Of a stretch of DNA of 64,000 nucleotides, positions 3,248 to 18,669 are shown one piece after another (positions within the stretch are counted from its first letter, which is position 1; each line of letters opens with the position of its first letter). Origin of the DNA: Arenimonas daejeonensis (lineage in GTDB: Bacteria > Pseudomonadota > Gammaproteobacteria > Xanthomonadales > Xanthomonadaceae); contig NZ_CP042453.1 of assembly GCF_007993735.1 (NCBI RefSeq), forward strand, positions 2,356,001 through 2,420,000. The letters are read 5' to 3'. The notes beneath the pieces were generated by a model. It worked only from the letters and a program-made list of their open reading frames with translations, did not search any database and was not told the DNA's origin. The translations under genes were made by a program, and so were the position numbers.

Positions 3248-3462
3248 CGCGGTTCTCCGCCAGGGGCCCCTGGGCGGCATCGTACCGCTTGGGCAGCGCG
3301 AATTCCCTTCGGTCGAACAGCGCGCACATCAAGGCCGATCCGAAGCCGGCCATGGCAAAAGCCCCCTGCCAAGAGTCACCTGTCCGAACCGCGGCCCCCG
3401 CCCCGATATATATTCGTCAGGCCGACCGGTGCCCTACCGGTCACGAAACACGGAGAGCAGTC

Positions 3463-4601
3463 ATGGGTCTTGTGCAGGCGGTGGTGGGTGCGGTCGGTGG
3501 CGTGCTGGCCGACCAGTGGAAGGACTTCTACACGGTGCCGGCCGGGCTGCCGGCGACGGCCGCGCTGTTCGCCGCCGTGCCCGGGGCACCAATGCCGGGC
3601 GCGGGTCGAACACGAAGGGTTCCACCAACATCATCAGCAACGGCTCGAAGATCGTCGTGCCCGAAGGTTATGGCCTGCTGCTGATGCAGGACGGCAAGGT
3701 CACCGGCTTCGCCGCCGAAGCGGGTGGCTACGAATGGCGCTCGGACGACATCAACTCCAAGTCGATCTTCGCCGGCGACGGCATCGTCAGCCCGCTGATC
3801 AAGCAGAGCTGGGAGCGCTTCAAGTTCGGCGGCCAGCCGGGCGGCCAGCAGCTGGCCTTCTTCGTCTCGCTGAAGGAACTGCCGGACAACCGCTTCGGCA
3901 CCCAGTCGGAAATCTACTGGGACGACGGTTTCCTCAACACCCAGGTCGGCGCGGTGACGCGCGGCTCGTACACGCTCAAGATCATCGACCCGATCCTGTT
4001 CGTGAAGAATTTCGTGCCGGCGAAGTACCTGGCGCCAGGCCAGGTGTTCGATTTCACCGACATCGACAATGCCGCGGCCAGCCAGCTGTTCAACGAAGTG
4101 GTGGGTTCGCTGGCGCCGGCCTTCAGCCTGTACTCCAACGATCCGTCCAAGGGCAACCGCATCACCAAGCTGCAGCAGGATTCGATCGGGTTCGCCAAGA
4201 GCCTGTCGGCGGCCGTCGAGCAGGGTTACCAGTGGAGCACCGACCGCGGCCTGGCCATCGTCAAGACCGCCATCGTCTCGATCGAGTACGACGCGAACAC
4301 GAAGGAACTGCTCAAGACCGTGCAGCGCGCCGATGCGCTGGCCGGCAGCCGCGGCAATTCCAACCTGCAGGCCAGCGTGGCCGCGGGCATCCAGTCGGCC
4401 GGCGAAACCGGCGGCGCGGCGGGCCTGGTGGGCGTGGGCATGGCGACCGGCATGCTCGGCGTCGGCGGCATGCAGCAGCCGGTGGCACCGGCGGCCGACG
4501 ACCCGATCGCCAAGCTGAAGAAGGCCAAGGAGATGCTGGACCTGGGGCTGATCAGCCAGGCCGACTACGACGCGGTCAAGGCCAAGCCCCTGGGCCTGTA
4601 A
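3463..4601 (+). CDS. SPFH-domain protein with C-terminal SHOCT motif, YdjI-like (frameshifted near 3582)
   Basis: About 380 residues. It starts MGLVQAVVGAVGGVLADQWK, continues through a stretch rich in beta strands (KIVVPEGYGLLLMQDGKVTG) and a long SPFH/band-7 type core, has a Gly/Ala-rich hinge at about residues 310-345, and ends with a SHOCT-like helix pair (DPIAKLKKAKEMLDLGLISQ). This is the layout of Bacillus YdjI-type proteins, soluble SPFH proteins linked to membrane stress. One C is missing in the CCC-GGGG run near 3582; the rest is conserved. It is followed within 10 bp by a zinc-ribbon membrane protein gene and then a small membrane protein gene. An inverted repeat (3424-3442) lies in its leader. 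Confidence 0.8.
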
Positions 4602-4610
4602 GCCGACCCC

Positions 4611-5924
4611 ATGGCCAATACGCCCCCGCCCCTCCCGCCCCCGCTGCCACCCGGCATCGGGCCGGGTTCGCCGCAGGAAGTGCCGCCGTTGCCGGGCACG
4701 TTCCCGGTGGATCCGGCCACTCTGCCCAAGCCCATCCGCGACGAAGTGCTGGCGCCCGACCCGGTCGCCATCGACACGGCGTCGGAGGAACTCAAGGACG
4801 GCCAGAACCACTGCCCGAAATGCGGCGCCACCGACATCAAGCAGCGGCCCGGCACCGACGTGCTGATCTGCCTGTACTGCCGCAATGAATGGCATGGCGA
4901 ACGGGTCGAGGAAGCGTTCGGGTTCGGCGAAGGCCTGGACGACCTGGAGGGAACGATCATCTCGTCCGGCGCGCAGAACATCGCGGCCGACGTGTCCCAC
5001 CTGATGTCCTACAAGTGCACCGGCTGCGGCGCCGAGGTCACCGTCAACACCGACAGCACGATGACGGCCCGCTGCCATTGGTGCCGCCACGTCTTCGGCG
5101 TGAACGAGCAGATAGCGAACGGCGCGGTGCCCGATGCGGTGCTGCCGTTCCGCATCAAGAAGGAGGATGCGATCGAGCGCATCCGCCAGTTCGTGGGCAA
5201 GCGCAAGATGTTCGCGTTGAAGGAGTTCAAGGCGCAGTTCTCGCCCGAGAACGTAGTGGGCGTGTACCTGCCCTACATGATCGTGGACGGCAAGTGCAGC
5301 GCCGACGTGGCCGGCCAGGGCGAGATCAAGACGCGCGAATACACGAAGGGCTCCGGCAAGGACAAGAAGACCTACTACGACGCCGACGTGTACGCGATCC
5401 AGCGTCACGTGGACTTCACCGTGGACGACCTGCCGCTGGAGTCCTCGGCCAAACGCGCCAAGCTCGACGCCAAGGCCAACACCCACAACATCATCAACAC
5501 CGTGCTGCCCTTCGACACCAAGAACGCGGTGAAGTGGAACGCGAGCTACCTGGCCGGTTACACCTCGGAACGGCGCGACGTGGACGTGGAGGCGCTGCGC
5601 CCGCGCCTGGAAGACCAGCTGCTGTCGATCGCCCGACACCGGGTGGAATCCTCGGTGGACCGCTACGACCGCGGCGTGCGCTGGGAAGAAGAAAGCCTGG
5701 ACGTGCACGGCACCCGCTGGGTGGCGATGTACCTGCCGGTGTGGCTGTACTCCTACCACCAGCCCGGCGCCAACGGCGGCATGCTGCACTACATCGCCGT
5801 GAACGGCCGCACCGGCGAAACCATGGGCAGCATCCCGATCCAGCAGTGGAAGCTGCTGCTGGCGGCACTCACCACCGGCACCTTCATCGAAGCTGTGGTG
5901 CTAGTCATCCTGGGGAGCCAGTAA
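4611..5924 (+). CDS. Double zinc-ribbon membrane protein, YdjG-like
   Basis: A 437-residue protein with a Pro-rich N-terminus (residues 1-60), then two zinc ribbons: CPKCG with CLYC at about 64-87 and CTGCG with CHWC at about 137-160. A large mixed alpha/beta region follows and a hydrophobic segment at about 415-435 forms a membrane anchor. Similar proteins are annotated as TFIIB-type zinc-ribbon proteins; Bacillus YdjG has a comparable zinc-ribbon-plus-membrane design and works with an SPFH partner in PspA recruitment. That parallel is inference from architecture and neighbours. The stop codon overlaps the next start by one base. Confidence 0.7.
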   Translation: MANTPPPLPPPLPPGIGPGSPQEVPPLPGTFPVDPATLPKPIRDEVLAPDPVAIDTASEELKDGQNHCPKCGATDIKQRPGTDVLICLYCRNEWHGERVEEAFGFGEGLDDLEGTIISSGAQNIAADVSHLMSYKCTGCGAEVTVNTDSTMTARCHWCRHVFGVNEQIANGAVPDAVLPFRIKKEDAIERIRQFVGKRKMFALKEFKAQFSPENVVGVYLPYMIVDGKCSADVAGQGEIKTREYTKGSGKDKKTYYDADVYAIQRHVDFTVDDLPLESSAKRAKLDAKANTHNIINTVLPFDTKNAVKWNASYLAGYTSERRDVDVEALRPRLEDQLLSIARHRVESSVDRYDRGVRWEEESLDVHGTRWVAMYLPVWLYSYHQPGANGGMLHYIAVNGRTGETMGSIPIQQWKLLLAALTTGTFIEAVVLVILGSQ

Positions 5925-6172
5925 TGAGCGACGACGGTGGCATCTGGCTGCTCGCCCTCGGCCCGGCCGGCGGCACGGCCCTGTACTGGGCCATCTACCG
6001 GTACTACCGCAACACCGACAAGTCGCATGCGTTCGAGCGCGAGACGAAAGTCGACGCCAAACCCGTGACGGGGTCGGACCGCAAGGTGGACACGGTGACG
6101 GGGACGCGGAAGACGCGGATTGATGGGGATAATGTGGGGGCGTATCGGGAGCGGGTGAAGCGCGGCCGGTAG
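5924..6172 (+). CDS. Small single-pass membrane protein of the SPFH/zinc-ribbon cassette
   Basis: An 82-residue protein. One hydrophobic segment at about residues 7-26 (IWLLALGPAGGTALYW) is followed by a highly charged cytoplasmic-type tail rich in Lys, Arg and Asp. The start ATG at 5924 shares its A with the TAA of the zinc-ribbon gene, so expression is coupled. No family is recognised with confidence. Its position as third gene of the cassette makes it a probable accessory or anchor for the SPFH/zinc-ribbon pair. Confidence 0.65.
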   Translation: MSDDGGIWLLALGPAGGTALYWAIYRYYRNTDKSHAFERETKVDAKPVTGSDRKVDTVTGTRKTRIDGDNVGAYRERVKRGR

Positions 6173-6179
6173 CGGCGAC

Positions 6180-6467
6180 TCAGGCCGCACGGATCTTCAG
6201 GCTGAGCTGCAGGCCTAGCGCGGTAGCGATATTCACCAGTGCGTCCAGCGAGAAGCGCGAAATGTGGCCGCGCAGCAGGTCGCTGACGCGGGGCTGGGTG
6301 AGGCCGCAGTGGGTCGCGGCAATGGACTGGGTCCAGCCCTTTCGTTTCACGTGCTCGGCGATGGCGATCATCAGGGCAGAGCGGAGTTTGAGGTTCGCGG
6401 CCTGGATGGGATCCTGTTCGAGGGCATCCCAGACGCTGGCGTAGCTTGTTTCGCTGATCTTGCTCAT
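6180..6467 (-). CDS. HigA/XRE-type helix-turn-helix antitoxin
   Basis: A 95-residue protein. The C-terminal half is a helix-turn-helix domain (GWTQSIAATHCGLTQPRVSDL) of the HTH_37/XRE type commonly encoded with RelE-like toxins. It would neutralise the toxin and, with it, repress the pair by binding DNA in front of the toxin gene. Its ATG at 6467 overlaps the toxin's TGA by four bases (ATGA). The order toxin-then-antitoxin is the HigBA arrangement. It abuts the SPFH cassette tail to tail, with only 7 bp between stops. Confidence 0.85.
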   Translation of the reverse strand: MSKISETSYASVWDALEQDPIQAANLKLRSALMIAIAEHVKRKGWTQSIAATHCGLTQPRVSDLLRGHISRFSLDALVNIATALGLQLSLKIRAA

Positions 6468-6799
6468 GGCTGCTCTCCTTTCAGCGATGCGAACCGGCGC
6501 CTGGCCAGTTCGAGGTCCAGCATCGCGGTGCGCTCGGTCTTCTTCTGGAACGCATGCAGTACGTAAACCGCCTCTTGCCGCCGTGCGGTGTAGATGACGC
6601 GATAGGCGCCGGAATCGTCCCGCACCCGGATTTCCTCGACGCCAGGCCCGATGCTGGGCATGGGCTTGAAGTCCTGTGGCTGCTCGCCGTTCTGCAGACG
6701 ATCCAGTTGGTAGCCCGCGTCTTGCCGGGCATTGGCTGGAAACGCACGTAGCCGCTTTAAGGAGTCTCCTAGGAACTTGACCGGTTTCGCGGCGATCAT
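6464..6799 (-). CDS. RelE/HigB-like toxin (phage Gp49-like family)
   Basis: A 111-residue protein with the RelE-fold pattern: N-terminal helices (SLKRLRAFPANARQDAGYQL), GVEEIRVRDDSGAYRVIYTA across the core strands, then a C-terminal AFQKKTERTA stretch followed by a basic helix. This matches the phage-derived Gp49-like/HigB family, ribosome-dependent mRNA interferases. The conserved Arg in EEIRV and YRVIY and the Lys pair in AFQKKT are present, so the toxin looks intact. It is the first gene of the pair; a perfect inverted repeat sits directly over its start. Confidence 0.85.
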   Translation of the reverse strand: MIAAKPVKFLGDSLKRLRAFPANARQDAGYQLDRLQNGEQPQDFKPMPSIGPGVEEIRVRDDSGAYRVIYTARRQEAVYVLHAFQKKTERTAMLDLELARRRFASLKGEQP

Positions 6800-6816
6800 A
6801 TATCCGATTTGATATA
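6799..6816. promoter_or_regulatory. Inverted repeat at the toxin-antitoxin start, candidate autoregulatory operator
   Basis: The sequence TATATC, six bases, GATATA is a perfect 6+6 inverted repeat that begins at the first base of the toxin start codon. AT-rich palindromes in this position are typical binding sites for HigA-type repressors. The function is inferred from position and symmetry only. Confidence 0.5.
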
Positions 6817-6966
6817 GACGGCAATTGCCTCGGCCTACACTTCTCGGACATCTCGGGATGGTCGTCTGTCGGAATTTGACGTGCCCGGCGCCGAGATAAC
6901 TGCTGGAATCGAGGTCGAGCCGGCTTACGGGTTAACCTGGTGAACAGTTGGCTGTCGGAGCATCCG

Positions 6967-8248
6967 ATGAAACGTTTCCGAATGGGCGAATTGTGCCGCT
7001 ACCCGAAACCCGCAACTCCGGGAATCCCGACGATCGACGGAATCCCCAATTTCCACTTTGTCGTCGCTATTGAAGGAATGCCGACGCTGCAGTTGGAAAA
7101 GGGAATAAATGCACCGAGCCCAACGCGAGCATCTGATGGCGAACGCCTTGCGGTAATTCTCCTCTCCAGCAATGAAAACAAACTCGGCTCGGCTGAGAAC
7201 CCATGGCACGACACCATTGCGCCGGACGAGGGCTTCGCCCGCTACTTCGGTGACAACAAGACACCCGGAGTCGACCCAGGTACCGCACCAGGGGAATAGA
7301 ACCTTGTTGCGACAGTTCGAGCTGCACACATCGCCCGAGAAAGCGAAACGTGAGCTCGCCGCTCCGGTCCTGCTGTTCAGGTCATCGAAAAAGGGATTCA
7401 AAGAGTTCTCTGGCCTTGCACTGATAACCGGCGCAAGGCGGGTTACTCAGTATTCCGAGAAGAACGGTGGATTCTTCACGAACTACCTTTTCGACCTGGC
7501 CGTGCTCTCGCTGACTGAAGAGGACGAAAGCCTAGCGATGATTTGGATTCAAGACCGTCGAGATCACGCACGCGAAGCGAAGATAGCCAATGCCATGGCG
7601 CCCAAGTCATGGCAACAGTGGGTCAAATACGGCAGCCCGGAGATTGAACGCGTCAAACGACGAGTAGCTCGGTACCACATCCTTTCCAAAAGCAACCAAG
7701 TTGCGTCGACGAATTCAGGGAGCGGAAAGACCCTGGAGGCAATCTATCGCTTTTACGAACCGCGACGTCACCGTTTTGAGGCGCTGGCCAGCTTGGCGTG
7801 CGAATCCATGGTTCGCGGCACCGGCGCAAGCTACCACCGCGGCTGGCTCACTCGCGGCACCGGTGACGGAGGGTTGGATTTCGTCGGCCGGATCGATATC
7901 GGTGAAGGTCTTTCCAGCACCAAACTCGTGGTGCTGGGCCAAGCGAAGTGCGAAAAAATCGATTCGCCCACTGGGGGCGTACATATCGCGCGAACCGTAG
8001 CTCGGCTGCGCCGAGGCTGGGTCGGCGCTTACGTGACGACTTCGTTCTTCTCCGAACCCGTCCAGCGAGAGGTCTATGAAGACCAGTACCCGGTACTACT
8101 TCTGAACGGACTAAGCCTGGCCAATGAAGTGACAAAGTTGAAACTGGCCTCTGGATTGGCCAGCACGGAGGACTTCCTGGAGCATGTCGATGCAGGGTAT
8201 GAAGAGCAGATCAGCAATCGAAGGCCCGAAGAAGTCCTGTGGGATTGA
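6967..8248 (+). CDS. AspBHI-like modification-dependent restriction endonuclease (frameshifted near 7293)
   Basis: About 427 residues after repair. The N-terminal part (MKRFRMGELCRYPKPATPGI, then YFGDNKTPGVDP) and the middle part (LLRQFELHTSP) match the recognition region of AspBHI-type nucleases, which read modified cytosine through an SRA-like fold. The C-terminal Mrr-like PD-(D/E)xK nuclease shows GDGGLDFVGR and, after a strand, VVLGQAKCEK, giving the D...Q-x-K catalytic set. One extra G in a GGGG run near 7292-7295 splits the frame. A GGAG lies six bases before the ATG at 6967; a GTG at 6940 is an alternative. No partner methylase is adjacent, as expected for this class. The gene is more A/T-rich than its surroundings, which suggests transfer. 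Confidence 0.82.
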
Positions 8249-8396
8249 TTCTCTGCAGAGCCCCGATGAATCAATCTGATTTTGCAGGGTATCTCTCGGA
8301 CAGCACGTGGGCGATGCGGCGCTTCGTGGACTCACCTAGCCTGGCGCCGAAGCCGACGCGCACCAGCCGCCCTGAGGATCAGCTCTCGCGATCCCT

Positions 8397-9301
8397 TCAA
8401 CTGGTGCGCGTGAAATCCCGATACGCCGCCAACACCTCCCCGGCGCCTCCACCTGCGGGTAATGCCCCACGCCCGGCAGTTCGTACACCGGCGCCTGCGG
8501 CAGCAGCTCGCGCCAGCGGGCGACGATGCTGCGGCCGGAGATGGGGTCTTCCAGGCCGTTGATCAGGGCGATGGGCACGGTGGCGTGCTGCAGGGCGCCG
8601 ACCCAGCGGTCGCGATGCTGGTGGCGTTCGGCGATGTAGCGCAGCAGCTTGGGCATCACCGCCTTGCCGCCGTCGCGGGTGAGCTGCTTCCAGGCTTCGG
8701 CCAGCTCGCCGGCGGGCCAGGGCCGCGTGCAGATGCGCTGCAGGCTGGCGGTAAAGGTGCGCTCGCTGACGAAGCGCGCCAGCAGCGGCCCCAGCGGCCC
8801 GGCCAGCAGGCGCTGGATACGCAGCGGCCGCGTGGCCTCGGGGAACAGCCCGCCATTGAGGAAGGCAACCGACGTGATGCGGAACCCCAGCCGGCCCTCG
8901 CGCTGCCGCGCCAGCAGTTCCTGCGCCACGGTATTGCCGTAGTCGTGCGCCAGTACCGCCACCTCGCGCACGCCCGTGGCCTCGGCCAGCGCCACCCACT
9001 GGTCGGCCGAGGCGGCGATGGAATAGTCGAAGTTTCGCGGCTTGGCCGAGGCGCCGAAGCCGAGCATGTCGAGGGCGAAGAGTTCGTGGTGTGTCGACAG
9101 CTCGGGCCACACCTCGCGCCAGTCACGGCTCGAGGTCGGGAACCCGTGGATAAGCCATAGCGCCGGCCCCTGCCCGTCCCGGCTCGCCTGCAGGCGGTGG
9201 CCCTGAAACGTGAGCGTGAACTTGGCGGCCTGTTCGTAACGGGTCACGCGAACCTCAGCCTGTAGGCCCTGCATCCATGCGGCGGCCGTCTGGTGCGCCA
9301 T
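8397..9301 (-). CDS. Alpha/beta hydrolase, haloalkane dehalogenase/epoxide hydrolase-like (frameshifted near 8447)
   Basis: About 301 residues. It shows the oxyanion HGFPTSSRDW motif, the nucleophile elbow region VAVLAHDYGNTVAQ (Asp nucleophile in H-D-Y-G, as in dehalogenase-like and epoxide hydrolase-like members), the acidic candidate in INGLEDPISG and the catalytic His in GVGHYPQVEAPG. One G is missing from a G run at about 8445; the repaired C-terminus reads EVLAAYRDF and stops at 8397. Codon use is GC-rich like the host chromosome, unlike the two A/T-richer genes on either side. The substrate cannot be stated. Confidence 0.8.
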
Positions 9302-9375
9302 CTGGCGCTCGGCCGGGCTTTGGCGCCACGTCTGACACGAGATTGGGAGCGCCGCCCTGAGCGCGAGTAAGACTT

Positions 9376-11366
9376 CTATGCCCCGTCAATGGCAACCACC
9401 ATGGCTTCATATTGCTTTCCAGCGACTGAACCATGCTTCGCAAGCATTTCATAAACGTGCAAGTTTCTTCGACCCTCTGCCACGCGAGTACCAATTAGCT
9501 TTAGTGGAAAACCAGCCAACGACTCAATCCCGAACGAACAACACAAGATTCCTCCTTCGGTCGAATCACCGATCCAGTAGACCTCTCTATCATCAAAGAC
9601 GCGCCGGACAGCCGTCTCGTTTGACAAGTAAATCTCACTCTCCCAGATGGTAATTACCTCTTCAAGGGAAGGAAGTCGCTTCCCGCCCGCGACCCTCATT
9701 ATTGAACTGTACTTCTCGCGAAAGATTCCGCGGTCCGAGGCATCCTCAATTTGGGACGTGTCATTTACAAACCAACGAAGTCCGTGCGTCCCATCATCAA
9801 TGATGTAAGCCAAAGATTGGAGGGACTTTCCATTTGTCATTACCCGGTACTGGCAGTTCCTCCATGCAACAGGAATCGTCCGAGCATGCCTCCGAGAGAT
9901 ATCCCGCTTTCTCAACACATCACGAACACTTGCGGCAGATCTCAACGAGGGGATCGGCAACGGGCTTGCAAGCGAATACAACCGCTCTCGTGTCGCGCTA
10001 TCGCTTCCAATCATTTGTGCCAAGAGCGTGGAGTTAGATGCATTCAGCTGACCCCAACTTACCAGCAGGTCCTTAATCAAGTCCGTCCAATCGAGAGCGA
10101 AACACCTTCGATCTCCCTGAATGATCCCTCGGACAATAAAGAACTCAAGCACAGATCGATGCGCGAACTTGTAGTGGCCTGCAATGTCACGATTCAATAA
10201 TGACCGAGACTTTAGTTTCCACTCATCCAGTGGATGACTGTGCTGTGAGGCAATCTTCCCCAGTTCATCTGGAGAGAGCCTGTCTCCACCGCCCGCCTGC
10301 TGCTTCTCCAAGAGAACGATTGCCAGTTCAGTTGAAATGCCAAGCAAATGCTCTGGCTCGATCCAGCCCTTCTCCCTAAGCACCCACTTATCGACCAAGA
10401 AAGAGTAGAGCTCAAAGAGCTCCGAAACTTTGCGGCCCTCTCGAACCAAATCTGGAAGCAACTCCAAGAGCATCGGCCTAACACTCAACTCTGGAATTGC
10501 TTCAACAAGACCTCTTGCTTTTCTTCTTAGTGCACCATTACTAATCGAGAAGAACGGAAAATTCCGTCGTATAAATATCTCGATCTGTTCGCGTGAGAAT
10601 GGCGCAAGAAATATCTTATACAGAGGGAGCTCTCTCGGAACGCCGGCCCTGCGCGGTCCTGCGTACATCACGCCAGACCCTTTTGGAATCGAATCATCGT
10701 TGTCGAAAAACTGGGTCCGACAGGTCACGACAATGTTCCGAAAATCTGCTGCAGCATTCATCAGATCCGCCAGGCGCTGCGCTTTGTTGCCAATTGCCCC
10801 AGGGTCCTCATCGAAAGCGTCGAGGAAAGCTATCGTTTCTCGTTTATTCTTGACCGCCGAAATTTGCGTGAATGCATCCCCCGACCCAGCGGAATGATCA
10901 CTATTGGCGATCCTTTGCCACCCTTTCCAGCCTCTTTGACGAAGTAATTTATGCAAAAACTTGTCTTCCCCATCCCTGAGTCTGCCAGCACCAGTAAATG
11001 CCGCTTCTCTCCTCCGGACTGAAAGTAGCTTTCTACCGTCTTAAACAGTGGGGCCAAAGCGACCACATTCCGAAGATCCTTCTCATCAGAAGGATCCGTT
11101 TGTGTGCAGTTTGGTTCCACGTAGAAGCGTACTGCCGCGGAAACGTCCTCAGCCGAGAGAGACTGAATTCCAGCATTTGAGGCCAACACCGCCGCAAATT
11201 GCCTGCTTTTTGAGCGATCACGGTACTCACGAACTGCATTTATGAGACGCAAAACTACCGCAACCGCACCGATGAAGCTTCCAATGCCGATGAAAAGCCG
11301 CCCATATGGGCTATTTACAGCATCCAGCAGCAGATCGACTAGAAGGTAACTTTTGCTTTCAACCAC
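9376..11366 (-). CDS. Membrane-anchored NACHT/STAND NTPase with Lcl/DUF1566-like C-terminus (frameshifted near 10875)
   Basis: About 663 residues. A membrane helix at residues 23-45 is followed by a linker, Walker A LADSGMGKTS (127-136) and Walker B IAFLDAFDED (about 179-187); the paired acidic residues are typical of NACHT-type STAND ATPases. A sensor-1-like VVTCRTQFF and a helical region (about 250-470) come next. The last ~150 residues contain IIDDGTHGLRWF, GKRLPSLEEVITIW and YWIGDST, an order reminiscent of the Lcl/DUF1566 domain. One G is missing from a G run near 10875. The start is GTG at 11366, preceded by AAGGA. Base composition is much more A/T-rich than flanking genes. A defence role is inferred from family and context. 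Confidence 0.72.
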
Positions 11367-11419
11367 AGGTAGTTCCTTCTGAATCGACTGGAATTTTCAA
11401 CAACTATGAAGGGCCCTAC

Positions 11420-14400
11420 TTACATATTCCGGCGGTACTCCCCACCCACCTCATAAAGCGCGTGACTGATCTGCCCCAACGAATGCGTCTTCACCGCCTC
11501 CATCAACGCCGCGAAGATGTTTTTGCGGTCACGGGCGGTGGTTTGTAGGTAGCTGAGTGGGTTCGCGCTTCGGGTTCCACCCCCTCGGGCGGCTTCGCCG
11601 CCCTCTCCCCCTGCCAGCAGGGGGAGGGAGTTGCGGGCGGCCTGGAAGGTGCGGACGTTGGCGATTTGGGCGTCTTTTTCGGGTTCGGTGCTGCGGATCA
11701 GCTCGATGGTGGTGGCCACTTCGCCGGCGTGGTCCTTGGGCAGGAAGGTGTTCACGCCCACCAGGGGCAGGCTGCCGTCGTGTTTTTTGTGTTCGTAGTA
11801 CAGGCTTTCTTCCTGGATCTTGCCGCGCTGGTACATGGTGTCCATGGCGCCCAGTACGCCGCCGCGTTCGCTCAGGGCTTCGAATTCCTTGTACACGGCC
11901 TCTTCCACCAGGTCGGTCAGGTGGTCCACGGCGAAGCTGCCCTGCCAGGGGTTCTCGTTGAAGTTGAGCCCCAGTTCCTTGTTGATGATCATCTGGATGG
12001 CCACGGCGCGGCGCACGCTTTCTTCGGTCGGCGTGGTGATGGCTTCGTCGTAGGCGTTGGTATGCAGGCTGTTGCAGTTGTCGAACAGCGCGTACAGGGC
12101 CTGCAGCGTGGTGCGGATGTCGTTGAACTGGATCTCCTGCGCGTGCAGGCTGCGGCCGCTGGTCTGGATGTGGTACTTCAGCATCTGGCTGCGTTCGTTG
12201 GCGCCGTAACGTTCGCGCATGGCGCGGGCCCAGATGCGGCGGGCCACGCGGCCGATCACCGTGTATTCCGGGTCCATGCCGTTGCTGAAGAAGAAGCTCA
12301 GGTTCGGCGCGAAGTCGTCGATGTGCATGCCGCGCGCGAGGTAGTACTCGACGATGGTGAAGCCGTTGCTCAGCGTGAAGGCCAATTGGGAGATCGGGTT
12401 GGCCCCGGCTTCCGCGATGTGGTACCCGCTGATCGAGACCGAATAGAAGTTGCGCACCTTTCGGTCGACGAAGAACTGCTGGATGTCGCCCATCATGCGC
12501 AGGGCGAATTCGGTGCTGAAGATGCAGGTGTTTTGGGCCTGGTCTTCCTTCAGGATGTCGGCCTGCACGGTGCCGCGCACGGTGCTTAGGGTTTTGGCCT
12601 TGATCTGTTCGTAGATTTCCGGCTCGACCAACTGGTCGCCGGTGATGCCCAGCAAGCCCAGGCCGAGGCCGTCGTTCGTGGGCGGAAGCTCGCCGTGGTA
12701 CTCGGGGCGCTTCTTGCCTTCGAAGAAGGCCTCGATCTTCGCGTGCGCCTCGTCCCAGCGCTTCTGGTCCTCACGCAGGTACTTCTCGACCTGCTGGTCG
12801 ATAGCCGTGTTCATGAACATCGCCAGGATCATCGGCGCCGGGCCGTTGATCGTCATGGAAACCGAGGTCGAGGGCGCACAGAGGTCGAAGCCGGAATACA
12901 GCTTCTTCATGTCGTCCAGGGTGGCGATGGACACGCCGCTGTTGCCGATCTTGCCGTAGATGTCCGGGCGTTCGGCCGGGTCCTCGCCGTACAGGGTGAC
13001 GCTGTCGAAGGCGGTGGACAGGCGCGCGGCCGGCTGGCCGACGCTGAGGTAATGGAAACGCCGGTTGGTGCGTTCGGGCGTGCCCTCGCCCGCGAACATG
13101 CGGATGGGGTCTTCGCCGGTGCGGCGGTAGGGGTATACGCCGCCGGTGTACGGGTAGGCGCCCGGCAGGTTTTCCTTGCTCAGGAAGGTCAGCAGTTCGC
13201 CCCAGCTGGTGTACTTGGGCGCGGCGATCTTCGGGATCTTCTGGTGGCTCAGGGATTCGCGGTAGTTCTCTACGCGCAGCACCTTGTCGCGGACCTTGTA
13301 CTCGCCCACTTCGTCGGTGATGGATTTCAGGCGCTCGGGCCATTCGCGCAGCAGGGTGATGGCTTCGGCGCTCAGCGCCTTCACCGCGTCGTTGTAACGC
13401 TGGCGCAGGGTGACCAGGCTGCGGTCCACCGTGGCGGCGACGCGGCGTTCTTCCTGCACCGGGCGGCTGCCGTCGGCGCGTTCGCCCAGGGCCTGCTGCC
13501 ACTTGAACACGACCTTGCGGCGGTCGCCGCCGGTGCGGCGTTCGCCGCAGGCGGGGTATTCGTTCGGGCTGCCGCCGGGGTGGCCGGGGCGCGCTGCAGC
13601 ATCAGGTGGTGCGGGTCGTAGAGGTCGAGCTGGCGCGGCAGGTCCGGGTCTTCCAGGTCGCGCAGGCTCTGCCAGTAGCTCTGGGCGCGGTCGGCGGCTT
13701 CGGCCTGGCGCTCGATGGCGGTGTTGATGTGGCGGCCCTGTTCGGCGATCTCGGCCAGGTAACGCGTGCGGGCGCCGGGGATCAGCACGGTGGCGCGCGG
13801 TTCCTTCAGGGCGGTGTCGACGTTCGGCGCGAAGTCACAGTGCGCGCTGTTGGGCTGCAGCTTGGCCTTCACCAAACGACACAGGTTCGCGAACATCCAG
13901 CTCACGCCCGGGTCGTTGAACTGCGAGGCGATGGTCGGATAGACCGGCACGTCCTCGTCCTTCATCGTGAAGGCGGTGCGGTTGCGCTTCCACTGCTTGC
14001 GCACGTCGCGCAGGGCGTCTTCGGCGCCGCGTTTGTCGAACTTGTTCAGCACCACCAGCTCGGCGTAGTCGATCATGTCGATCTTCTCGAGCTGGCTGGG
14101 CGCGCCGAAGTCGCTGGTCATCACGTAGACCGGGAAGTCCACCAGGTCCACGATTTCCGAATCGCTCTGGCCAATGCCGGCGGTTTCCACCATCACCAGG
14201 TCGTAGCCCTGGCCACGCAGGAAGGCCACGCAGTCCTTCAGCACCAGGTTGATGGCGGCGTTCTGGCGGCGGGTGGCCATGGAGCGCATGAACACGCGCG
14301 GGCTGCGCAGGCTGTTCATTCGGATGCGGTCGCCCAGCAGGGCGCCGCCGGTGCGGCGGCGGGTCGGGTCGACGCTGATCACCGCGATGCGCATTTCCGG

Positions 14401-15140
14401 GAAGTGCTGCAGGAAGCGGTTCATCAGCTCGTCGGTGACGGACGACTTGCCCGCGCCGCCGGTGCCGGTGAGGCCGATGACCGGGGTCTTGCCGCCGGCC
14501 AGCTGCCATTCCTTGCGCAGGGTGGCCAGCTGGGTTTCGTCGAGTTCGCCTTCTTCGATGGCGGTCAGCATTTTGCCGATGCTGATCTCGTCGTTGATGT
14601 CGAGCTTGGCGGGGAATGTGGATTCGGCGTCCTTATTGCCCTTCTTGCCCTTGGCGGCGGGGCGGCGCTGCGCGCCTGGCGGGCCACCTCGGTGCGGCGG
14701 ACCAGGTCTTCGATCATCGCCACCAGGCCCATCTGCATGCCGTCGTTGGGGTGGTAGATGCGCTCGACGCCGTAGTCCTGCAGTTCCTTGATTTCTTCCG
14801 GGGTGATGGTGCCGCCGCCGCCGCCGAAGACGCGGATGTGTTCGGCGCCGCGTTCCTTCAGCATGTCCACCATGTACTTGAAGTATTCGGTGTGGCCGCC
14901 CTGGTAGCTGCTGAGGGCGATGCCGTCGGCGTCTTCCTGCAGGGCGGCGCGCACCACGTCTTCGACGCTTCGGTTGTGGCCCAGGTGCACCACTTCCACG
15001 CCTTGCGCCTGGATCAGGCGGCGCATGATGTTGATGGCGGCGTCGTGGCCGTCGAACAGGCTGGCCGCGGTGACGAAGCGCAGGGGCTGGCGTTCGGTCT
15101 GGGTGTCGGCGGTGGGGAGGTGGGAGGCGGGGGTGCTCAT
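11420..15140 (-). CDS. icmF: Fused isobutyryl-CoA mutase IcmF (frameshifted near 13585 and 14665)
   Basis: About 1240 residues after adding two missing bases. An N-terminal B12-binding domain ([16 protein letters not shown], with the cobalt-ligating His) is followed by a MeaI/ArgK-type G-protein chaperone (Walker [27 protein letters not shown]) and a C-terminal CoA mutase barrel. This order defines IcmF, which interconverts isobutyryl- and n-butyryl-CoA and repairs its own cofactor loading. Breaks: a C run near 14665 in the linker after the B12 domain, and near 13585 between the G domain and the mutase. The reading frame also carries a GC-rich palindromic repeat encoding about 17 extra residues (11587-11630). 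It fits the branched-chain acyl-CoA genes downstream. Confidence 0.92.
11587..11630. repeat. REP-like palindromic repeat inserted in frame within icmF
   Basis: Two adjacent hairpins: GGGCGGC/GCCGCCC at 11587-11603 and CTCCCCCTG/CAGGGGGAG at 11605-11626. The second resembles the repeat unit at about 35509-35522. It lies inside the icmF coding sequence near its 3' end and is translated as [18 protein letters not shown], a Gly/Ala-rich insert just before [19 protein letters not shown]. Confidence 0.65.
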
Positions 15141-15201
15141 GGGGCGCGCTCGGACAGCTAAGGCGGGGATGGCCCGATTGTAACTGCCTCGCGAGGTTGT
15201 G

Positions 15202-15240
15202 CCCCCTCCCCGGCCCTCCCCCGCTGCGCGAGGGAGGGAG
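15202..15240. repeat. GC-rich extragenic palindromic repeat
   Basis: The CCCCCTCCCCGGCCCTCCCC unit is followed by a GGGAGGG arm, so it can form a stem-loop. The same 20-base unit recurs at 34764-34783. It lies between icmF and the sulfotransferase gene, both on the minus strand, and could reduce read-through between them. Confidence 0.6.
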
Positions 15241-15263
15241 AAGTGATGTGCCGCGGCGAAGGC

Positions 15264-16810
15264 CTAATCGCCCAGTGCGGCCTTCAGGGGCTGCAGGTGG
15301 GATTCGTAGCGGCGCCATTGGCCGAGGAAGCGGCGGTGGATGGGTTCGCGGACCTGGGCGGCGCTGGCGGTGGCGACGGTGCCGGTGCGGGATTCGATGG
15401 CGGACAGGCCGATGGCGGGGGCAGGCCGCAGTGGGCCAGCACGGCGTGGGCGGTGGTTTCGGGGTCGGAGACCAGGGCGTCGTAGGCCACGTCCAGCAGG
15501 CGGCCGGGGAACTGCGTGTGCCAGTGCGCCATCAGCTTCCGGTAGCGCAGGAAATGCGCGGCCATCTCGCCCTGGTCGTAGCTGTGCGGGTAGGCGTCGC
15601 CGAACAGTTCCTTGAGGTTGGAGAAGCACACGTCCATCGGGTCGCGCACCAGGTGCAGGAAGCGCGCCTGCGGCAGCACGTTGGCGAGGTAGCCGACGTT
15701 GAGGAAGTTGGCCGGCATCTTGTCGGTGTAGAACGCCCTGCCCTGCGCATGCCACTGCGTGTGGTCCAGGTAACGGCGGCCCAGCGTGGACAGGTCGGTG
15801 CGGGCGGCGGCGCGGGCCAAGGCGGCGTCGGGCTGGGGGCCGCCGAAGACTTCGGTGCACCAGCGCAGCTGCACGGTGAAGTCGCGCAGTTCGCCGGCGT
15901 CGGTCACGTCGGGGTGGCCGCCGACGATGCGCTCCAGCAGGGTCGTGCCCGAGCGCGGCATGCCGACGATGAAGATCGGTACTGGGCCGGGTTCCACCGG
16001 CGGCGGCGTGGCGGTGGCGCGCACCTGCATCAGCTGTTCGAACAGTGCCGCATCGGCGGCAGGGTCGTAGCGCAGCTGCAGCCGGCGCAGGCGCATGCCG
16101 GTTTCCAGGGCTGGCCAGGCGGCGGCGGTGTCGCCCAGGTCGTCGAGTTCCTTGAACAGGGCGTAGTGCAGCAGCGGGGTGTCGGGGTGTTGTTCGGGAA
16201 CGCGCGCGATGGCGGCGCGCAGGCGGTCCACGTGGTTGCGGGCCGGGGTGGCGCGGCGCAGTTTCGCCAGCGTGCGGAAGGCAGGCGCGTGGTCGGGCGC
16301 GCGGGCCAGGCAGGCCTCGAGTTCGGTTTCGGCCGCGTCGTCGTGCCCGGCGTAACTTTCGGCGTAACCCAGCTGGTAATGCAGGTCGGCGCTGTCGGCA
16401 CCCAGCGAACGCGCGCGGCGCAGCAGGGCGATGGCGCGTTCGGGCACGCCCTGGTCGGCCATCATGCGGCCCAGGCCGGCCAGCACGGCGGCGTCGGTGC
16501 AGGTGGCGATGCTCGGGTCGTCCACGCAGGCCAGCGCGTGGCGCAGTTCGCCGACGTTCAACAGCAGCCGGCACAGCGCTTCCAGCAGCACCGGGTCGGG
16601 TTCGCGGGTGTCGAAGGCGGCCAGGGCGTGGTCCACGGCCGCGCGCAGTTGAGCGGTTTCCAGGGCGATGGCGCCCAGGCGCAGGCGCGCGGGCAGGATC
16701 CAGTCCGGGTCGGCCAGCAGTTCCAGGTACAGGTCGCGGGCCGGTTCGAGTTGCCGTGCGGCCAGCAGGGCTTCCGCGCGCTGCCAGCGCGGCAGGGACG
16801 GATTGGTCAT
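15264..16810 (-). CDS. TPR-containing sulfotransferase (frameshifted near 15418)
   Basis: About 515 residues. The first ~250 residues are TPR-like helical repeats (for example DSADLHYQLGYAESYAGHDD). The second half is a sulfotransferase domain with the 5'-phosphosulfate loop PIFIVGMPRSGTTLLERI and the downstream FLHLVRDPMDVCFSN motif that contacts the PAPS 3'-phosphate. One C is missing from a C run near 15418, after AHCGLPP; the repaired end is REPIHRRFLGQWRRYESHL, a typical C-terminus of this family, stopping at 15264. The start ATG at 16810 shares a base with the stop of the upstream gene. The acceptor substrate is unknown. Confidence 0.85.
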
Positions 16811-17453
16811 CAGCCGCCCAGGGTCTGGCAGAAGGACTTGGCGAAGGCCGTGCAGCGGGCTTCGACCGCCGGGCGGCCGGCGGCGTCCACCAGGTTGAGG
16901 CTGGCGCCGCGCAGGCGGTCGATCTCGGCGCCGCGGCGGAAGGCGACTTCGCGCTGCAGGCGGGCGCGGCTGTGGTCGTCCAGGCCGGATTCGAAGGTGA
17001 CGCGGTTGTCGGCCAGGGCGCGCCAGGGCACGAAGATGGCGTGCAGTTCGCCGTCGGTAAGGGCAAAGAAACCGGCACCGAACAGGTCGGCGCTGGCGGT
17101 GTGGGCGAACAGCGTCCACTCGCCGCCGTCGCGGTACTTCAGGGTGCTGGTGACCGAGCCCGGCGGCGCCACGGCGCGGCCTTCGGTGTCGGCGCTGAGC
17201 AGTATGCCGCGCAGGTCGCCGATGGGATTGAATGGGTTTCCTCGCCGGCGCGCAGGATGACGTTGCCGCCTTCCCAGTCCAGGCCGGTGAGGTGGCCGAA
17301 CAGCAGGTCGCCGGAATCGAGCAGCAGGATGACCTTCTGCAGGTCGGGGTTGACCTGCCCCATCCAGCGCGGCGGCTGCGGCAGGCCGTACAGCACGCCC
17401 GAGCCGTAGCCGAAGCTGCCCGGAAGGTCGTCAACACGTTGCAGGTCGCCCAT
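16810..17453 (-). CDS. Protein of unknown function coupled to the sulfotransferase (frameshifted near 17230)
   Basis: About 214 residues once one base is restored near 17228-17233. I do not recognise the family. The N-terminal third is hydrophobic and beta-rich (WMGQVNPDLQKVILLLDSGD), the middle reads GEWTLFAHTASADLFGAGFF, and the C-terminal end has an alternating charged helix (RARLQREVAFRRGAEIDRLR) then CTAFAKSFCQTLGG. There is no signal peptide. Its TGA overlaps the ATG of the TPR-sulfotransferase, so the two are co-translated, and it lies 46 bp from the pilU stop. The real start is taken as ATG 17453 (MGDLQRV). Confidence 0.6.
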
Positions 17454-17499
17454 GGCGGCGAGTCTAGAAGTTTCAGGCGGGCTTTTCATCGCCCCGACC

Positions 17500-18669
17500 C
17501 TACGCGGCCGCCCCGGAACCGCGGATGAAACGCTCAGCTGGCTTTTTCTCGTCTTCTTCCGGCAGCGTGTCCAGGCTGAAGCCGGCCTGGTCCAGCACGC
17601 CCTGCCCGCCCTTCAGCCGCACCCGCAGGGCCAGGTCGGTGCGCGAGTCGGCATGTTCCATGATGTCGGCGTAGGACACCCGGCCTTCCGAATACAACTG
17701 GAACAGCGCCTCATCGAAGGTCTGCATGCCATTGCCCGAATCCAGGCGCATGGTGTCCTTCAGATTGCCGACTTCGCCCTTCTCGATCAGGTTGCGCACA
17801 TAGGGCGTGCTCACCAGCACTTCCACCGCCGGCACCCGGCCGCCGCCGATCGCCGGCAACAGGCGCTGGCTGACCACGGCCTGCAGGTTCTGCGACAGGT
17901 CGGCCAGCAACTGGTCGCGGGCCGCTTCCGGGAAGAAGTTCAGGATCCGGTCCAGGGTCTGGTTGGCGTTGTTGGCGTGCAGGGTGGACAGGCAAAGGTG
18001 GCCGGTTTCGGCATAGGCGATCGCGGCCTGCATGGTTTCGCGGTCGCGGATCTCGCCGATCATGATCACGTCGGGTGCTTCGCGCATGGCGTTTTTCAGG
18101 GCATTGGCGTAGCTCTTGGTGTCCAGGCCGACCTCGCGCTGGTCCACCACGCTCAAACGGTGCCGGTGCACGTATTCGATCGGTTCCTCGATGGTGAGGA
18201 TGTGGTCGGTGCGGCTGCGGTTGCGGTGGTCGATCAGCGCCGCCAGCGTGGTGGACTTGCCGGCGCCGGTGGAACCGACCACCAGCACCAGGCCGCGCGG
18301 CAGCATCACCAGGTCCTTGAGCACGGGCGGCAGGTTCAGGCTGTCGAAGGACGGGATGTCGTCGGTGATGTAGCGCACCACCATCGCCACCTCGCCGCGC
18401 TGGCGGTACAGGTTGACGCGGAAGCGGCCGATGCCGGGACGGGTGATGCCGAGGTTCATTTCCCACTCGGCTTCGAACTCGGCGCGCTCGCGCTCGTTCA
18501 TCACCGACATGGCCATGGCCTGGATGTGCTCACCCGCCAGCGGCTCGTCGTTGAGGCGGCGGATGCGGCCGTCATCCTTCAGGCAGGCGGGCGCGCCGGC
18601 ACTGAGGAACAGGTCGGAGGCGTCCTCGTCCACCATCTGGCGGAGGTACTGGTCGAGCTCGAGAGGCAT
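17500..18669 (-). CDS. pilU: Type IV pilus retraction ATPase PilU
   Basis: A 389-residue hexameric ATPase of the PilT/PilU family that powers pilus retraction from the cytoplasmic face of the inner membrane. Walker A is VGSTGAGKSTT; the Asp box is HILTIEEPIEYVH; Walker B is VIMIGEIRDRETM; the His box is TGHLCLSTLHANN. The extended C-terminus after the ATPase core and the N-terminus (LDQYLRQMVDEDASDLFLS) fit PilU better than PilT. No pilT lies next to it in this window, whereas the two are adjacent in many genomes. The start at 18669 is preceded by a terminator-like hairpin at 18751-18781. Confidence 0.9.
   Translation of the reverse strand: MPLELDQYLRQMVDEDASDLFLSAGAPACLKDDGRIRRLNDEPLAGEHIQAMAMSVMNERERAEFEAEWEMNLGITRPGIGRFRVNLYRQRGEVAMVVRYITDDIPSFDSLNLPPVLKDLVMLPRGLVLVVGSTGAGKSTTLAALIDHRNRSRTDHILTIEEPIEYVHRHRLSVVDQREVGLDTKSYANALKNAMREAPDVIMIGEIRDRETMQAAIAYAETGHLCLSTLHANNANQTLDRILNFFPEAARDQLLADLSQNLQAVVSQRLLPAIGGGRVPAVEVLVSTPYVRNLIEKGEVGNLKDTMRLDSGNGMQTFDEALFQLYSEGRVSYADIMEHADSRTDLALRVRLKGGQGVLDQAGFSLDTLPEEDEKKPAERFIRGSGAAA

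What the first reader, a model, noticed from the sequence alone, without database searches (positions are those of the whole stretch)
9376..11366. Membrane-anchored NACHT ATPase with a possible Lcl/DUF1566 sensor: candidate new defence architecture
The gene joins an N-terminal membrane helix, a clean NACHT core (GMGKTS, LDAFDED) and a C-terminal domain whose order of motifs (D-D-G-T-x-G-L-x-W, R-L-P-S-L-E-E, Y-W-I) recalls Lcl/DUF1566 domains. Lectin-like sensor domains fused to STAND ATPases are known in bacterial conflict systems, but a single-protein, membrane-tethered version next to a type IV nuclease is not one I recognise. The frame is interrupted by one missing G near 10875.
Basis: partly seen in the sequence, partly recalled or inferred. 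Interest (0 to 1): 0.75.

Follow-up and report, generated by a model that had tools for sequence, protein, structure and literature searches.

The report
Membrane-anchored NACHT defence receptor, swappable sensor
A bacterial relative of animal inflammasome proteins, tied to the cell membrane and carrying an exchangeable sensor end, sits in a chromosomal slot that related species fill with other anti-phage-like genes, so it is probably an undescribed kind of phage alarm; its copy here is split by what is probably a sequencing error.

Summary
In detail: two overlapping minus-strand ORFs (10830-11366, 9376-10956) carry one hydrophobic N-terminal helix, a STAND/NACHT-type ATPase core and a C-terminal region with the DxTxGLxW / RLPSxEE / YW series. 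The frame break is probably an assembly error: conserved IcmF next door lies in three frames, the restriction gene in two, and intact relatives of all three exist.

Seven genes share the core; six have the N-terminal helix. Their C-termini fall into three classes without similarity to each other (window type, a second unknown, pentapeptide repeats): a constant membrane ATPase with swapped sensors. The gene is rare (4 of 395 family genomes), AT-rich (50% GC in a 68% window) and hit by no PADLOC model.

Context is the strongest evidence. Its slot, directly 3' of IcmF, holds defence-like cargo in 8 of 15 species examined, each different. Elsewhere the gene lies downstream of a BREX operon, or beside the same methyl-directed restriction enzyme; 2 of 7 loci are among housekeeping genes.

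The Lcl sensor claim is unproven: Lcl and cyclophilin-like domains both score above controls, neither decisively, and structure models failed (pLDDT 37 and 45).

Verdict: probable membrane-acting STAND defence receptor, a new variant of a known kind.

The parts
9376..11366 (-). TM-NACHT gene, in two overlapping frames in this assembly
   Evidence: intact relatives of 663-678 aa
10830..11366 (-). N-terminal ORF: membrane helix, conserved YVEPxCxQTDP region, P-loop
11241..11297 (-). predicted transmembrane helix (residues 24-42), basic residues after it
   Evidence: hydropathy only; such a helix is present in 6 of 7 family members
10959..10982 (-). Walker A, DSGMGKTS
9376..10956 (-). C-terminal ORF: Walker B, sensor 1, helical part, C-terminal sensor region
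10804..10827 (-). Walker B, FLDAFDED
10141..10170 (-). KFAHRSVLEF, end of the shared core
9379..9939 (-). C-terminal putative sensor domain (fold unresolved: Lcl-like, cyclophilin-like or other)
9309..11419 (.). variable slot 3' of IcmF that holds the gene; the closest relative examined, G003, has other cargo there
6940..8248 (+). methyl-directed restriction endonuclease (mREase_II), in two frames; neighbour, possible partner
   Evidence: homologue beside the TM-NACHT of G466
8336..9301 (-). alpha/beta hydrolase, conserved anchor between two variable slots; not part of the system
11420..15140 (-). IcmF-type methylmalonyl-CoA mutase fusion (name recalled; Pfam MM_CoA_mutase), conserved anchor; in three frames in this assembly

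Best explanation
The gene encodes a STAND (NACHT-type) receptor of a horizontally moving anti-phage defence family. One N-terminal helix holds it in the inner membrane with ATPase and C-terminal domain in the cytosol (predicted from hydropathy and charge). The C-terminal domain senses something made or changed by an invader (inferred); binding would let the ATPase exchange nucleotide and oligomerise (inferred from the STAND class), and the gathered membrane helices, with no other effector recognisable, would damage the membrane and stop growth or kill the cell (inferred, least certain step). The C-terminal sensor is exchangeable within the family. It probably works alone, as cargo of a defence slot 3' of IcmF, next to but not necessarily with the restriction enzyme.
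For: STAND motifs kept in 7 of 7 core members; best Foldseek hit of the intact relative's low-confidence model is NLRP9, E 6.9e-5, TM-score only 0.16; N-terminal helix in 6 of 7, with net charge more positive on its C-side in those 6. All 21 core pairs similar, but only 7 of 21 C-terminal pairs, forming three classes. IcmF-3' slot: defence-like cargo in 8 of 15 species examined, including the window. P. sabiae plasmid copy starts about 100 bp after the small gene that follows brxL of a BREX-1 operon. Same restriction enzyme family beside the G466 copy. Sporadic presence: 4 of 395 family genomes, 1 of 20, 1 of 52. Lowest-GC 2-kb stretch of the window.
Against: No experiment. No match in the phage collection or by pattern scan in viral contigs. 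Two of 7 loci (Luteimonas sp. 9C, G806) lie among housekeeping genes. G896 has the core without the helix, so the helix is not essential to the core family. PADLOC hits none of the window pieces or four relatives at E 0.001, and Pfam gives only sub-cut-off P-loop/STAND hits. Seven of the 15 IcmF slots show no defence-like gene. A single helix could be a tether, not an effector.
Confidence: 0.6

Rival explanations
1. Same receptor, but the helix is only a tether that places it at the membrane, and the killing or cutting is done by a partner (the adjacent methyl-directed nuclease, BREX or another neighbour).
For: The same mREase_II family lies next to the core gene in two loci (window and G466); BREX lies next to it in P. 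sabiae.
Against: In Luteimonas sp. 9C and G806 no such neighbour was recognised on reading the ORFs of the 17.5 and 19 kb fetched (no family search was run on their neighbours apart from one small ORF of L009), so no obligate partner; the two mREases are 70-81% identical while the NACHT cores are 40% identical, i.e. different histories; orientation differs (convergent here, divergent in G466).
Confidence: 0.2
2. C-terminal domain is a C-type-lectin-like Lcl/DUF1566 sensor.
For: Motif series in order, met by none of 200,000 shuffles of the window sequence (pattern written after seeing it); a looser pattern fits 9 of 15 Lcl domains and 0 of 4 cyclophilin-like ones. hhalign score 28.9, above 100 permuted templates (max 21.9) and 31 decoy families (max 19.1), and 27.5-29.3 on leaving one row out; an alignment forced over the whole domain keeps the three motifs in register. 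STAND-FGS/CLec fusions are known (PMC8195603, PMC10907252, passages).
Against: The confident part is only 17 columns, and the global-mode score is low (12.4, probability 1%); Pfam Lcl_C hits none of 4 members with the limit at E 10; the only PDB family found by the profile is TM1367.
Confidence: 0.4
3. C-terminal domain is cyclophilin-like (TM1367 / Cyclophil_like, PF04126), unusual for a STAND sensor.
For: Only PDB family hit by the four-row profile with the limit at E 10: TM1367, E 0.0099 and 0.012, also top hit of the window piece, E 0.051; hhalign 31.8 over 65 columns against permuted maximum 23.4.
Against: Falls to 22.4 without the window row and 26.8 without the P. sabiae row; single-sequence PDB searches of the other three members do not find it; Pfam model silent; only 4 template sequences.
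Confidence: 0.25
4. A decaying pseudogene: the frame break is real and the gene is dead here.
For: The reading frame is broken in the assembly.
Against: IcmF beside it is broken twice and the restriction gene once, whereas IcmF has an open frame of at least 1,173 aa in 15 of the 19 other genus genomes with a match (G020, G022, G008 and G025 shorter or in pieces); genome completeness 86% on one contig fits indel errors.
Confidence: 0.15

Closest known systems
bNACHT proteins (bacterial NLR-related, e.g. bNACHT25; PMC12169576, passages read)
   Same: single-gene NACHT-type STAND protein, N-terminal effector position, C-terminal part, defence
   Different: bNACHT25 has an N-terminal PD-(D/E)XK nuclease and an NCH1 helical C-terminal domain; here a single membrane helix and a C-terminus that does not look helical; no experiment here
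STAND NTPase-FGS / DGR-diversified CLec sensors (PMC8195603 and PMC10907252, passages read)
   Same: STAND NTPase with C-terminal lectin-fold sensor; for one NACHT-CLec target a periplasmic placement is predicted there
   Different: those carry FGS/CLec, often with EAD adaptors and a DGR reverse transcriptase; none was recognised among the ORFs read beside the window gene; Lcl identity here unproven
AVAST / Avs antiviral STAND NTPases
   Same: STAND ATPase that senses phage proteins (recalled)
   Different: Avs proteins are large, with repeat sensors and nuclease or SIR2 effectors (recalled); no PADLOC Avs model among the hits at E 1
NACHT-pentapeptide and NACHT-WD40 proteins
   Same: the core is shared with G806 and G896, which end in pentapeptide repeats; distant NACHT hits in Nostoc, one of them a WD40 protein
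   Different: window gene has neither repeat

Membership tests
STAND/NACHT NTPases | Walker A P-loop | tested here: met
   DSGMGKTS; equivalent in 7 of 7 members
STAND/NACHT NTPases | Walker B with small residue after the D and further acidic residues (hhhD[AG]xDE; recalled hallmark) | tested here: met
   FLDAFDED; D-A in 7 of 7
STAND/NACHT NTPases | FxHxSxxE-type motif at the end of the helical part (recalled) | tested here: met
   KFAHRSVLEF and equivalents in 7 of 7
STAND/NACHT NTPases | match to Pfam PF05729 over cut-off | tested here: not met
   no hit for window pieces, for L009, L015, L016 and P. sabiae or G806; only G896, E 0.0011, under the cut-off
Lcl/DUF1566 (PF07603) | match to the Pfam model | tested here: not met
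   0 of 4 members with the limit at E 10 (HMMER filters apply)
Lcl/DUF1566 (PF07603) | DxxTGLxW, RLPxxxEL, [FY]WSS, vRLVR motif order | tested here: inconclusive
   first three present in modified form, low-stringency alignment in register; last not clear
Lcl/DUF1566 (PF07603) | C-type-lectin fold | tested here: inconclusive
   models pLDDT 37 and 45; Foldseek without a match under E 0.001 for the C-terminal model
Cyclophil_like (PF04126) | sequence profile similarity over the domain | tested here: inconclusive
known defence systems of PADLOC 2.0 | hit to a system model | tested here: not met
   (best E 0.008, P-loop part of GajB, for L009)
DGR-diversified sensors | reverse transcriptase and template repeat nearby | not tested
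   no repeat or RT model search was run; no such gene recognised in the ORFs of 90 aa or more read at 4000-18000
anti-phage defence | protects against phage | not testable with these tools
   -

The most novel reading that the evidence does not exclude
A previously unnamed family of single-gene, membrane-anchored NLR-like phage receptors: a constant membrane-helix plus NACHT module onto which at least three unrelated C-terminal sensors have been exchanged, whose helices form the killing assembly on activation, shuttled through a genus-wide defence slot downstream of IcmF.
Probability: 0.4. Interest if true: 0.7.

Novelty: new variant of a known kind. Interest (0 to 1): 0.5.

Why it matters
If true, bacteria use a compact NLR-like receptor that acts at the membrane itself, as animal and plant NLRs do at the end of their pathways (recalled), and swap its sensor while keeping the rest. 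It would add a small, testable single-gene system, and the slot 3' of IcmF gives a place to look for further defence genes in this bacterial family.

Tried and rejected
Structure prediction: two jobs, both low confidence; only window and the search for related loci sequences may be used, which gave two or three rows. Foldseek on the C-terminal model gave nothing under E 0.001. Pfam, PADLOC, NCBIfam on the C-terminal piece: nothing (the last with one MelC1 match at E 0.11 for one of four members). Phages, viral contigs: nothing. The C-terminal domain profile over 299 order genomes: only the window's own, so no intermediates towards Lcl or cyclophilin-like domains. The genome-contig scan gave one relative; its two short patterns make it insensitive. 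G271, G078 and G899, matched by the first searches, were checked and not counted as family: 23-28% identity over the NACHT part; G271 is a NACHT-pentapeptide-WD40 protein without a membrane helix. I considered and dropped: a fixed two-gene system with the restriction enzyme (not recognised in other loci); a real pseudogene (neighbouring genes broken too); ordinary helical-repeat C-terminus (not seen in either model, weak evidence).

Controls: 100 column-permuted templates each, 31 decoy families, leave-one-out, 10 hand-picked non-slot genes in PADLOC (1 of 10 with a weak hit, E 6.4e-5). The shuffle test used a pattern written after seeing the sequence.

Bias to note: the slot cargos scanned with PADLOC were those I judged defence-like from their ORFs; the 7 slots counted as without defence cargo were judged by reading ORFs (one gene, of G001, scanned with Pfam), not by PADLOC, and two of those stretches are short (G001 2.1 kb, G023 4.5 kb). 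Five of the 20 genus genomes with an IcmF match were not examined: in G018, G026, G009 and G008 the contig ends within about 2 kb of the match; G025 was not fetched.

Full report
1. Is it there? Yes. The gene lies in two overlapping minus-strand ORFs, 10830-11366 and 9376-10956. Against the intact Luteimonas sp. 9C relative (L009, 663 aa) the first matches the N-terminal part and the second the rest, with the frame passing around 10878-10881.

The frame break is probably an assembly error. IcmF, an open frame of at least 1,173 aa in 15 of the 19 other genus genomes with a match, lies in three frames in the window; the restriction gene lies in two frames, while its relative in G466 is a single 426-aa ORF. 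The genome is one contig with 86% completeness. No reads were available, so this is inference.

2. Anatomy. One hydrophobic helix at residues 24-42 followed by basic residues; a conserved stretch (YVEPxCxQTDP) before the P-loop; Walker A, Walker B, sensor 1 and the KFAHRS motif that closes the core; then about 255 residues of C-terminal region. Pfam's NACHT model does not hit the window pieces; the assignment rests on motifs, on weak similarity to annotated NACHT proteins of Nostoc (E 4e-4 and 5e-4), and on the best Foldseek match of the relative's low-confidence model, NLRP9, E 6.9e-5 but TM-score 0.16.

3. The family. Full-length relatives: Luteimonas sp. 9C (L009), G627 (L015, 666 aa), Paraburkholderia sabiae plasmid pPs24235_2 (L003, 678 aa when the start is taken upstream of the annotated one, which includes the helix), G466 (L016, 678 aa). 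With the profile, G806 (808 aa) and G896 (949 aa) share the core too. Split at KFAH[RY]S, 21 of 21 core pairs are similar at E 1e-3, while the C-termini give 7 of 21 pairs: {window, L009, L015, P. sabiae}, {G466 alone} and {G806, G896: pentapeptide repeats,} (for the window the second ORF alone was used). The helix is in 6 of 7; G896 lacks it. This is a constant module with exchanged C-termini, as expected of sensors.

4. Frequency. Bacterial family: 5 of 395 genomes matched, of which 4 with the core gene and 1 (G626) a short NACHT match. Genus of the window: 1 of 27 genomes, its own. Sample of 100 relatives: 2 matched, the own and a NACHT stretch in G078. Genus of G627: 1 of 20; genus of Luteimonas 9C: 1 of 52. 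Phylum sample: 14 of 398 matched, of which 3 (window, G806, G896) reach over the N-terminal core. Class sample: 4 of 369, besides the window only NACHT stretches in G239, G271 and G329 (G271 checked). Plasmids: 6 of 72,556 records, 1 over 80% of the query. Phages: none of 50,697. Viral contigs: none by pattern scan. The gene is 50.4% GC in a 67.7% window and marks its lowest 2-kb stretch; five relatives' genes are 47-57%, below their loci.

5. Context. Against the closest relative examined, G003, the order is: conserved 3388-6189, variable 6190-8410, conserved hydrolase 8411-9308, variable 9309-11419, conserved IcmF. The TM-NACHT starts 53 bp after the IcmF stop, same strand. I examined the IcmF 3' side in 15 species including the window. 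Eight hold defence-like cargo, in the direction of IcmF and beginning within about 115 bp of its end: window TM-NACHT; G003 FRG (PDC-S15, E 1.9e-48) + GmrSD_N (NsnA 3.1e-26); G020 PDC-M71A/B (1.1e-99, 2.8e-87); G002 RelA/SpoT-type PDC-S33 (1.5e-26); G015 a weakly AbiZ-like gene (4.8e-5), then an OLD-like one (4.7e-51); G011 PD-Lambda-4_A-like (5.9e-15); G022 PDC-M31A/B (5.3e-160, 4.7e-37); G005 adenine methylase (7.1e-93), a membrane protein and a DndB/DpdB-like gene (4.9e-23). Seven do not (G001, G004, G007, G012, G021, G023, G024), by reading ORFs. Of 10 hand-picked genes elsewhere in the same stretches 1 had a PADLOC hit, E 6.4e-5. The choice of cargos was not blind.

Other family loci: P. 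sabiae, downstream of DUF1819-DUF1788-brxC-pglX-pglZ-brxL (the first two are brxA and brxB, recalled) and a small gene; G466, between a PD-(D/E)XK-like gene (weak, E 0.23) and the same mREase_II family as in the window; G627, behind an XRE-type regulator and near a PDC-S33 gene (a family also found in the G002 slot) and an HNH gene (PDC-M68A, 3.5e-27); G896, near a toxin-antitoxin-like pair; Luteimonas sp. 9C and G806, among housekeeping genes. So 4 of 7 have recognised defence genes nearby, 1 a toxin-antitoxin-like pair, 2 none recognised.

6. The C-terminal domain. For Lcl: motif order, hhalign 28.9 against permuted maximum 21.9 and decoy maximum 19.1, stable on leaving out any row, but confident over only 17 columns and weak in global mode. 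For cyclophilin-like: the only PDB family found by the profile, E 0.0099, hhalign 31.8 over 65 columns, but dependent on the window row (22.4 without it), and not found by the other three members singly. Structure predictions had mean pLDDT 37.3 and 45.2: both show mixed strands and helices rather than helical repeats, which I count as weak evidence. I put Lcl-like at 0.4, cyclophilin-like at 0.25, something else at 0.35.

7. How it works. Shown by sequence: ATPase motifs, hydrophobic helix, exchangeable C-terminus, defence-like neighbourhood. Inferred: sensing by the C-terminus, ATP-driven oligomerisation, membrane damage by gathered helices. The tether-plus-partner reading remains open.

8. 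What is known. STAND NTPases with C-terminal lectin-fold sensors are described as conflict systems (PMC8195603, passages; PMC10907252, passages, which also predicts one NACHT-CLec target with periplasmic domains). bNACHT proteins protect against phages and carry N-terminal nucleases in clade 6 (PMC12169576, passages). DS-8, a NACHT with metallophosphatase, is a further validated variant (PMC13092281, passages). A search for DUF1566 with NACHT gave no paper. The other searches listed nothing that describes this family in title or start of abstract; other papers were seen as listings only. The library lacks most subscription papers, so absence is not shown.

9. Verdict. Observation confirmed; interpretation partly supported; a new variant of a known kind. 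Interest 0.5.

Noticed in passing
window 9309-11419 and the IcmF 3' side of 14 other species (L081, L083, L086-L097): The position directly 3' of IcmF appears to be a genus-wide slot for single defence modules (8 of 15 species examined), in the direction of IcmF in all 8.
   Followed up: partly
window 6190-8410; L081:6088-8708: A second variable slot on the other side of the conserved hydrolase: Gp49/HTH toxin-antitoxin-like pair + mREase in the window, HigB/HTH pair + HNH + Mrr in G003.
   Followed up: partly
L003:9497-11533 (WP_201659270.1, P. sabiae): Annotated start lies downstream of the membrane helix; an in-frame ATG upstream adds it.
   Followed up: yes
L015:13999-16455: Zeta-toxin domain protein with an XVIPCD tail (Pfam X-Tfes), i.e. 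probably a type IV secretion effector against other bacteria (recalled), near the TM-NACHT of G627.
   Followed up: no
window 11420-15140, 6940-8248: Frame breaks in other genes suggest an indel-rich assembly; other apparently broken genes of this window should be read with care.
   Followed up: partly
L090:560-4177: 1205-aa protein distantly like PD-Lambda-4_A behind IcmF in G011, no Pfam hit at E 0.001.
   Followed up: no
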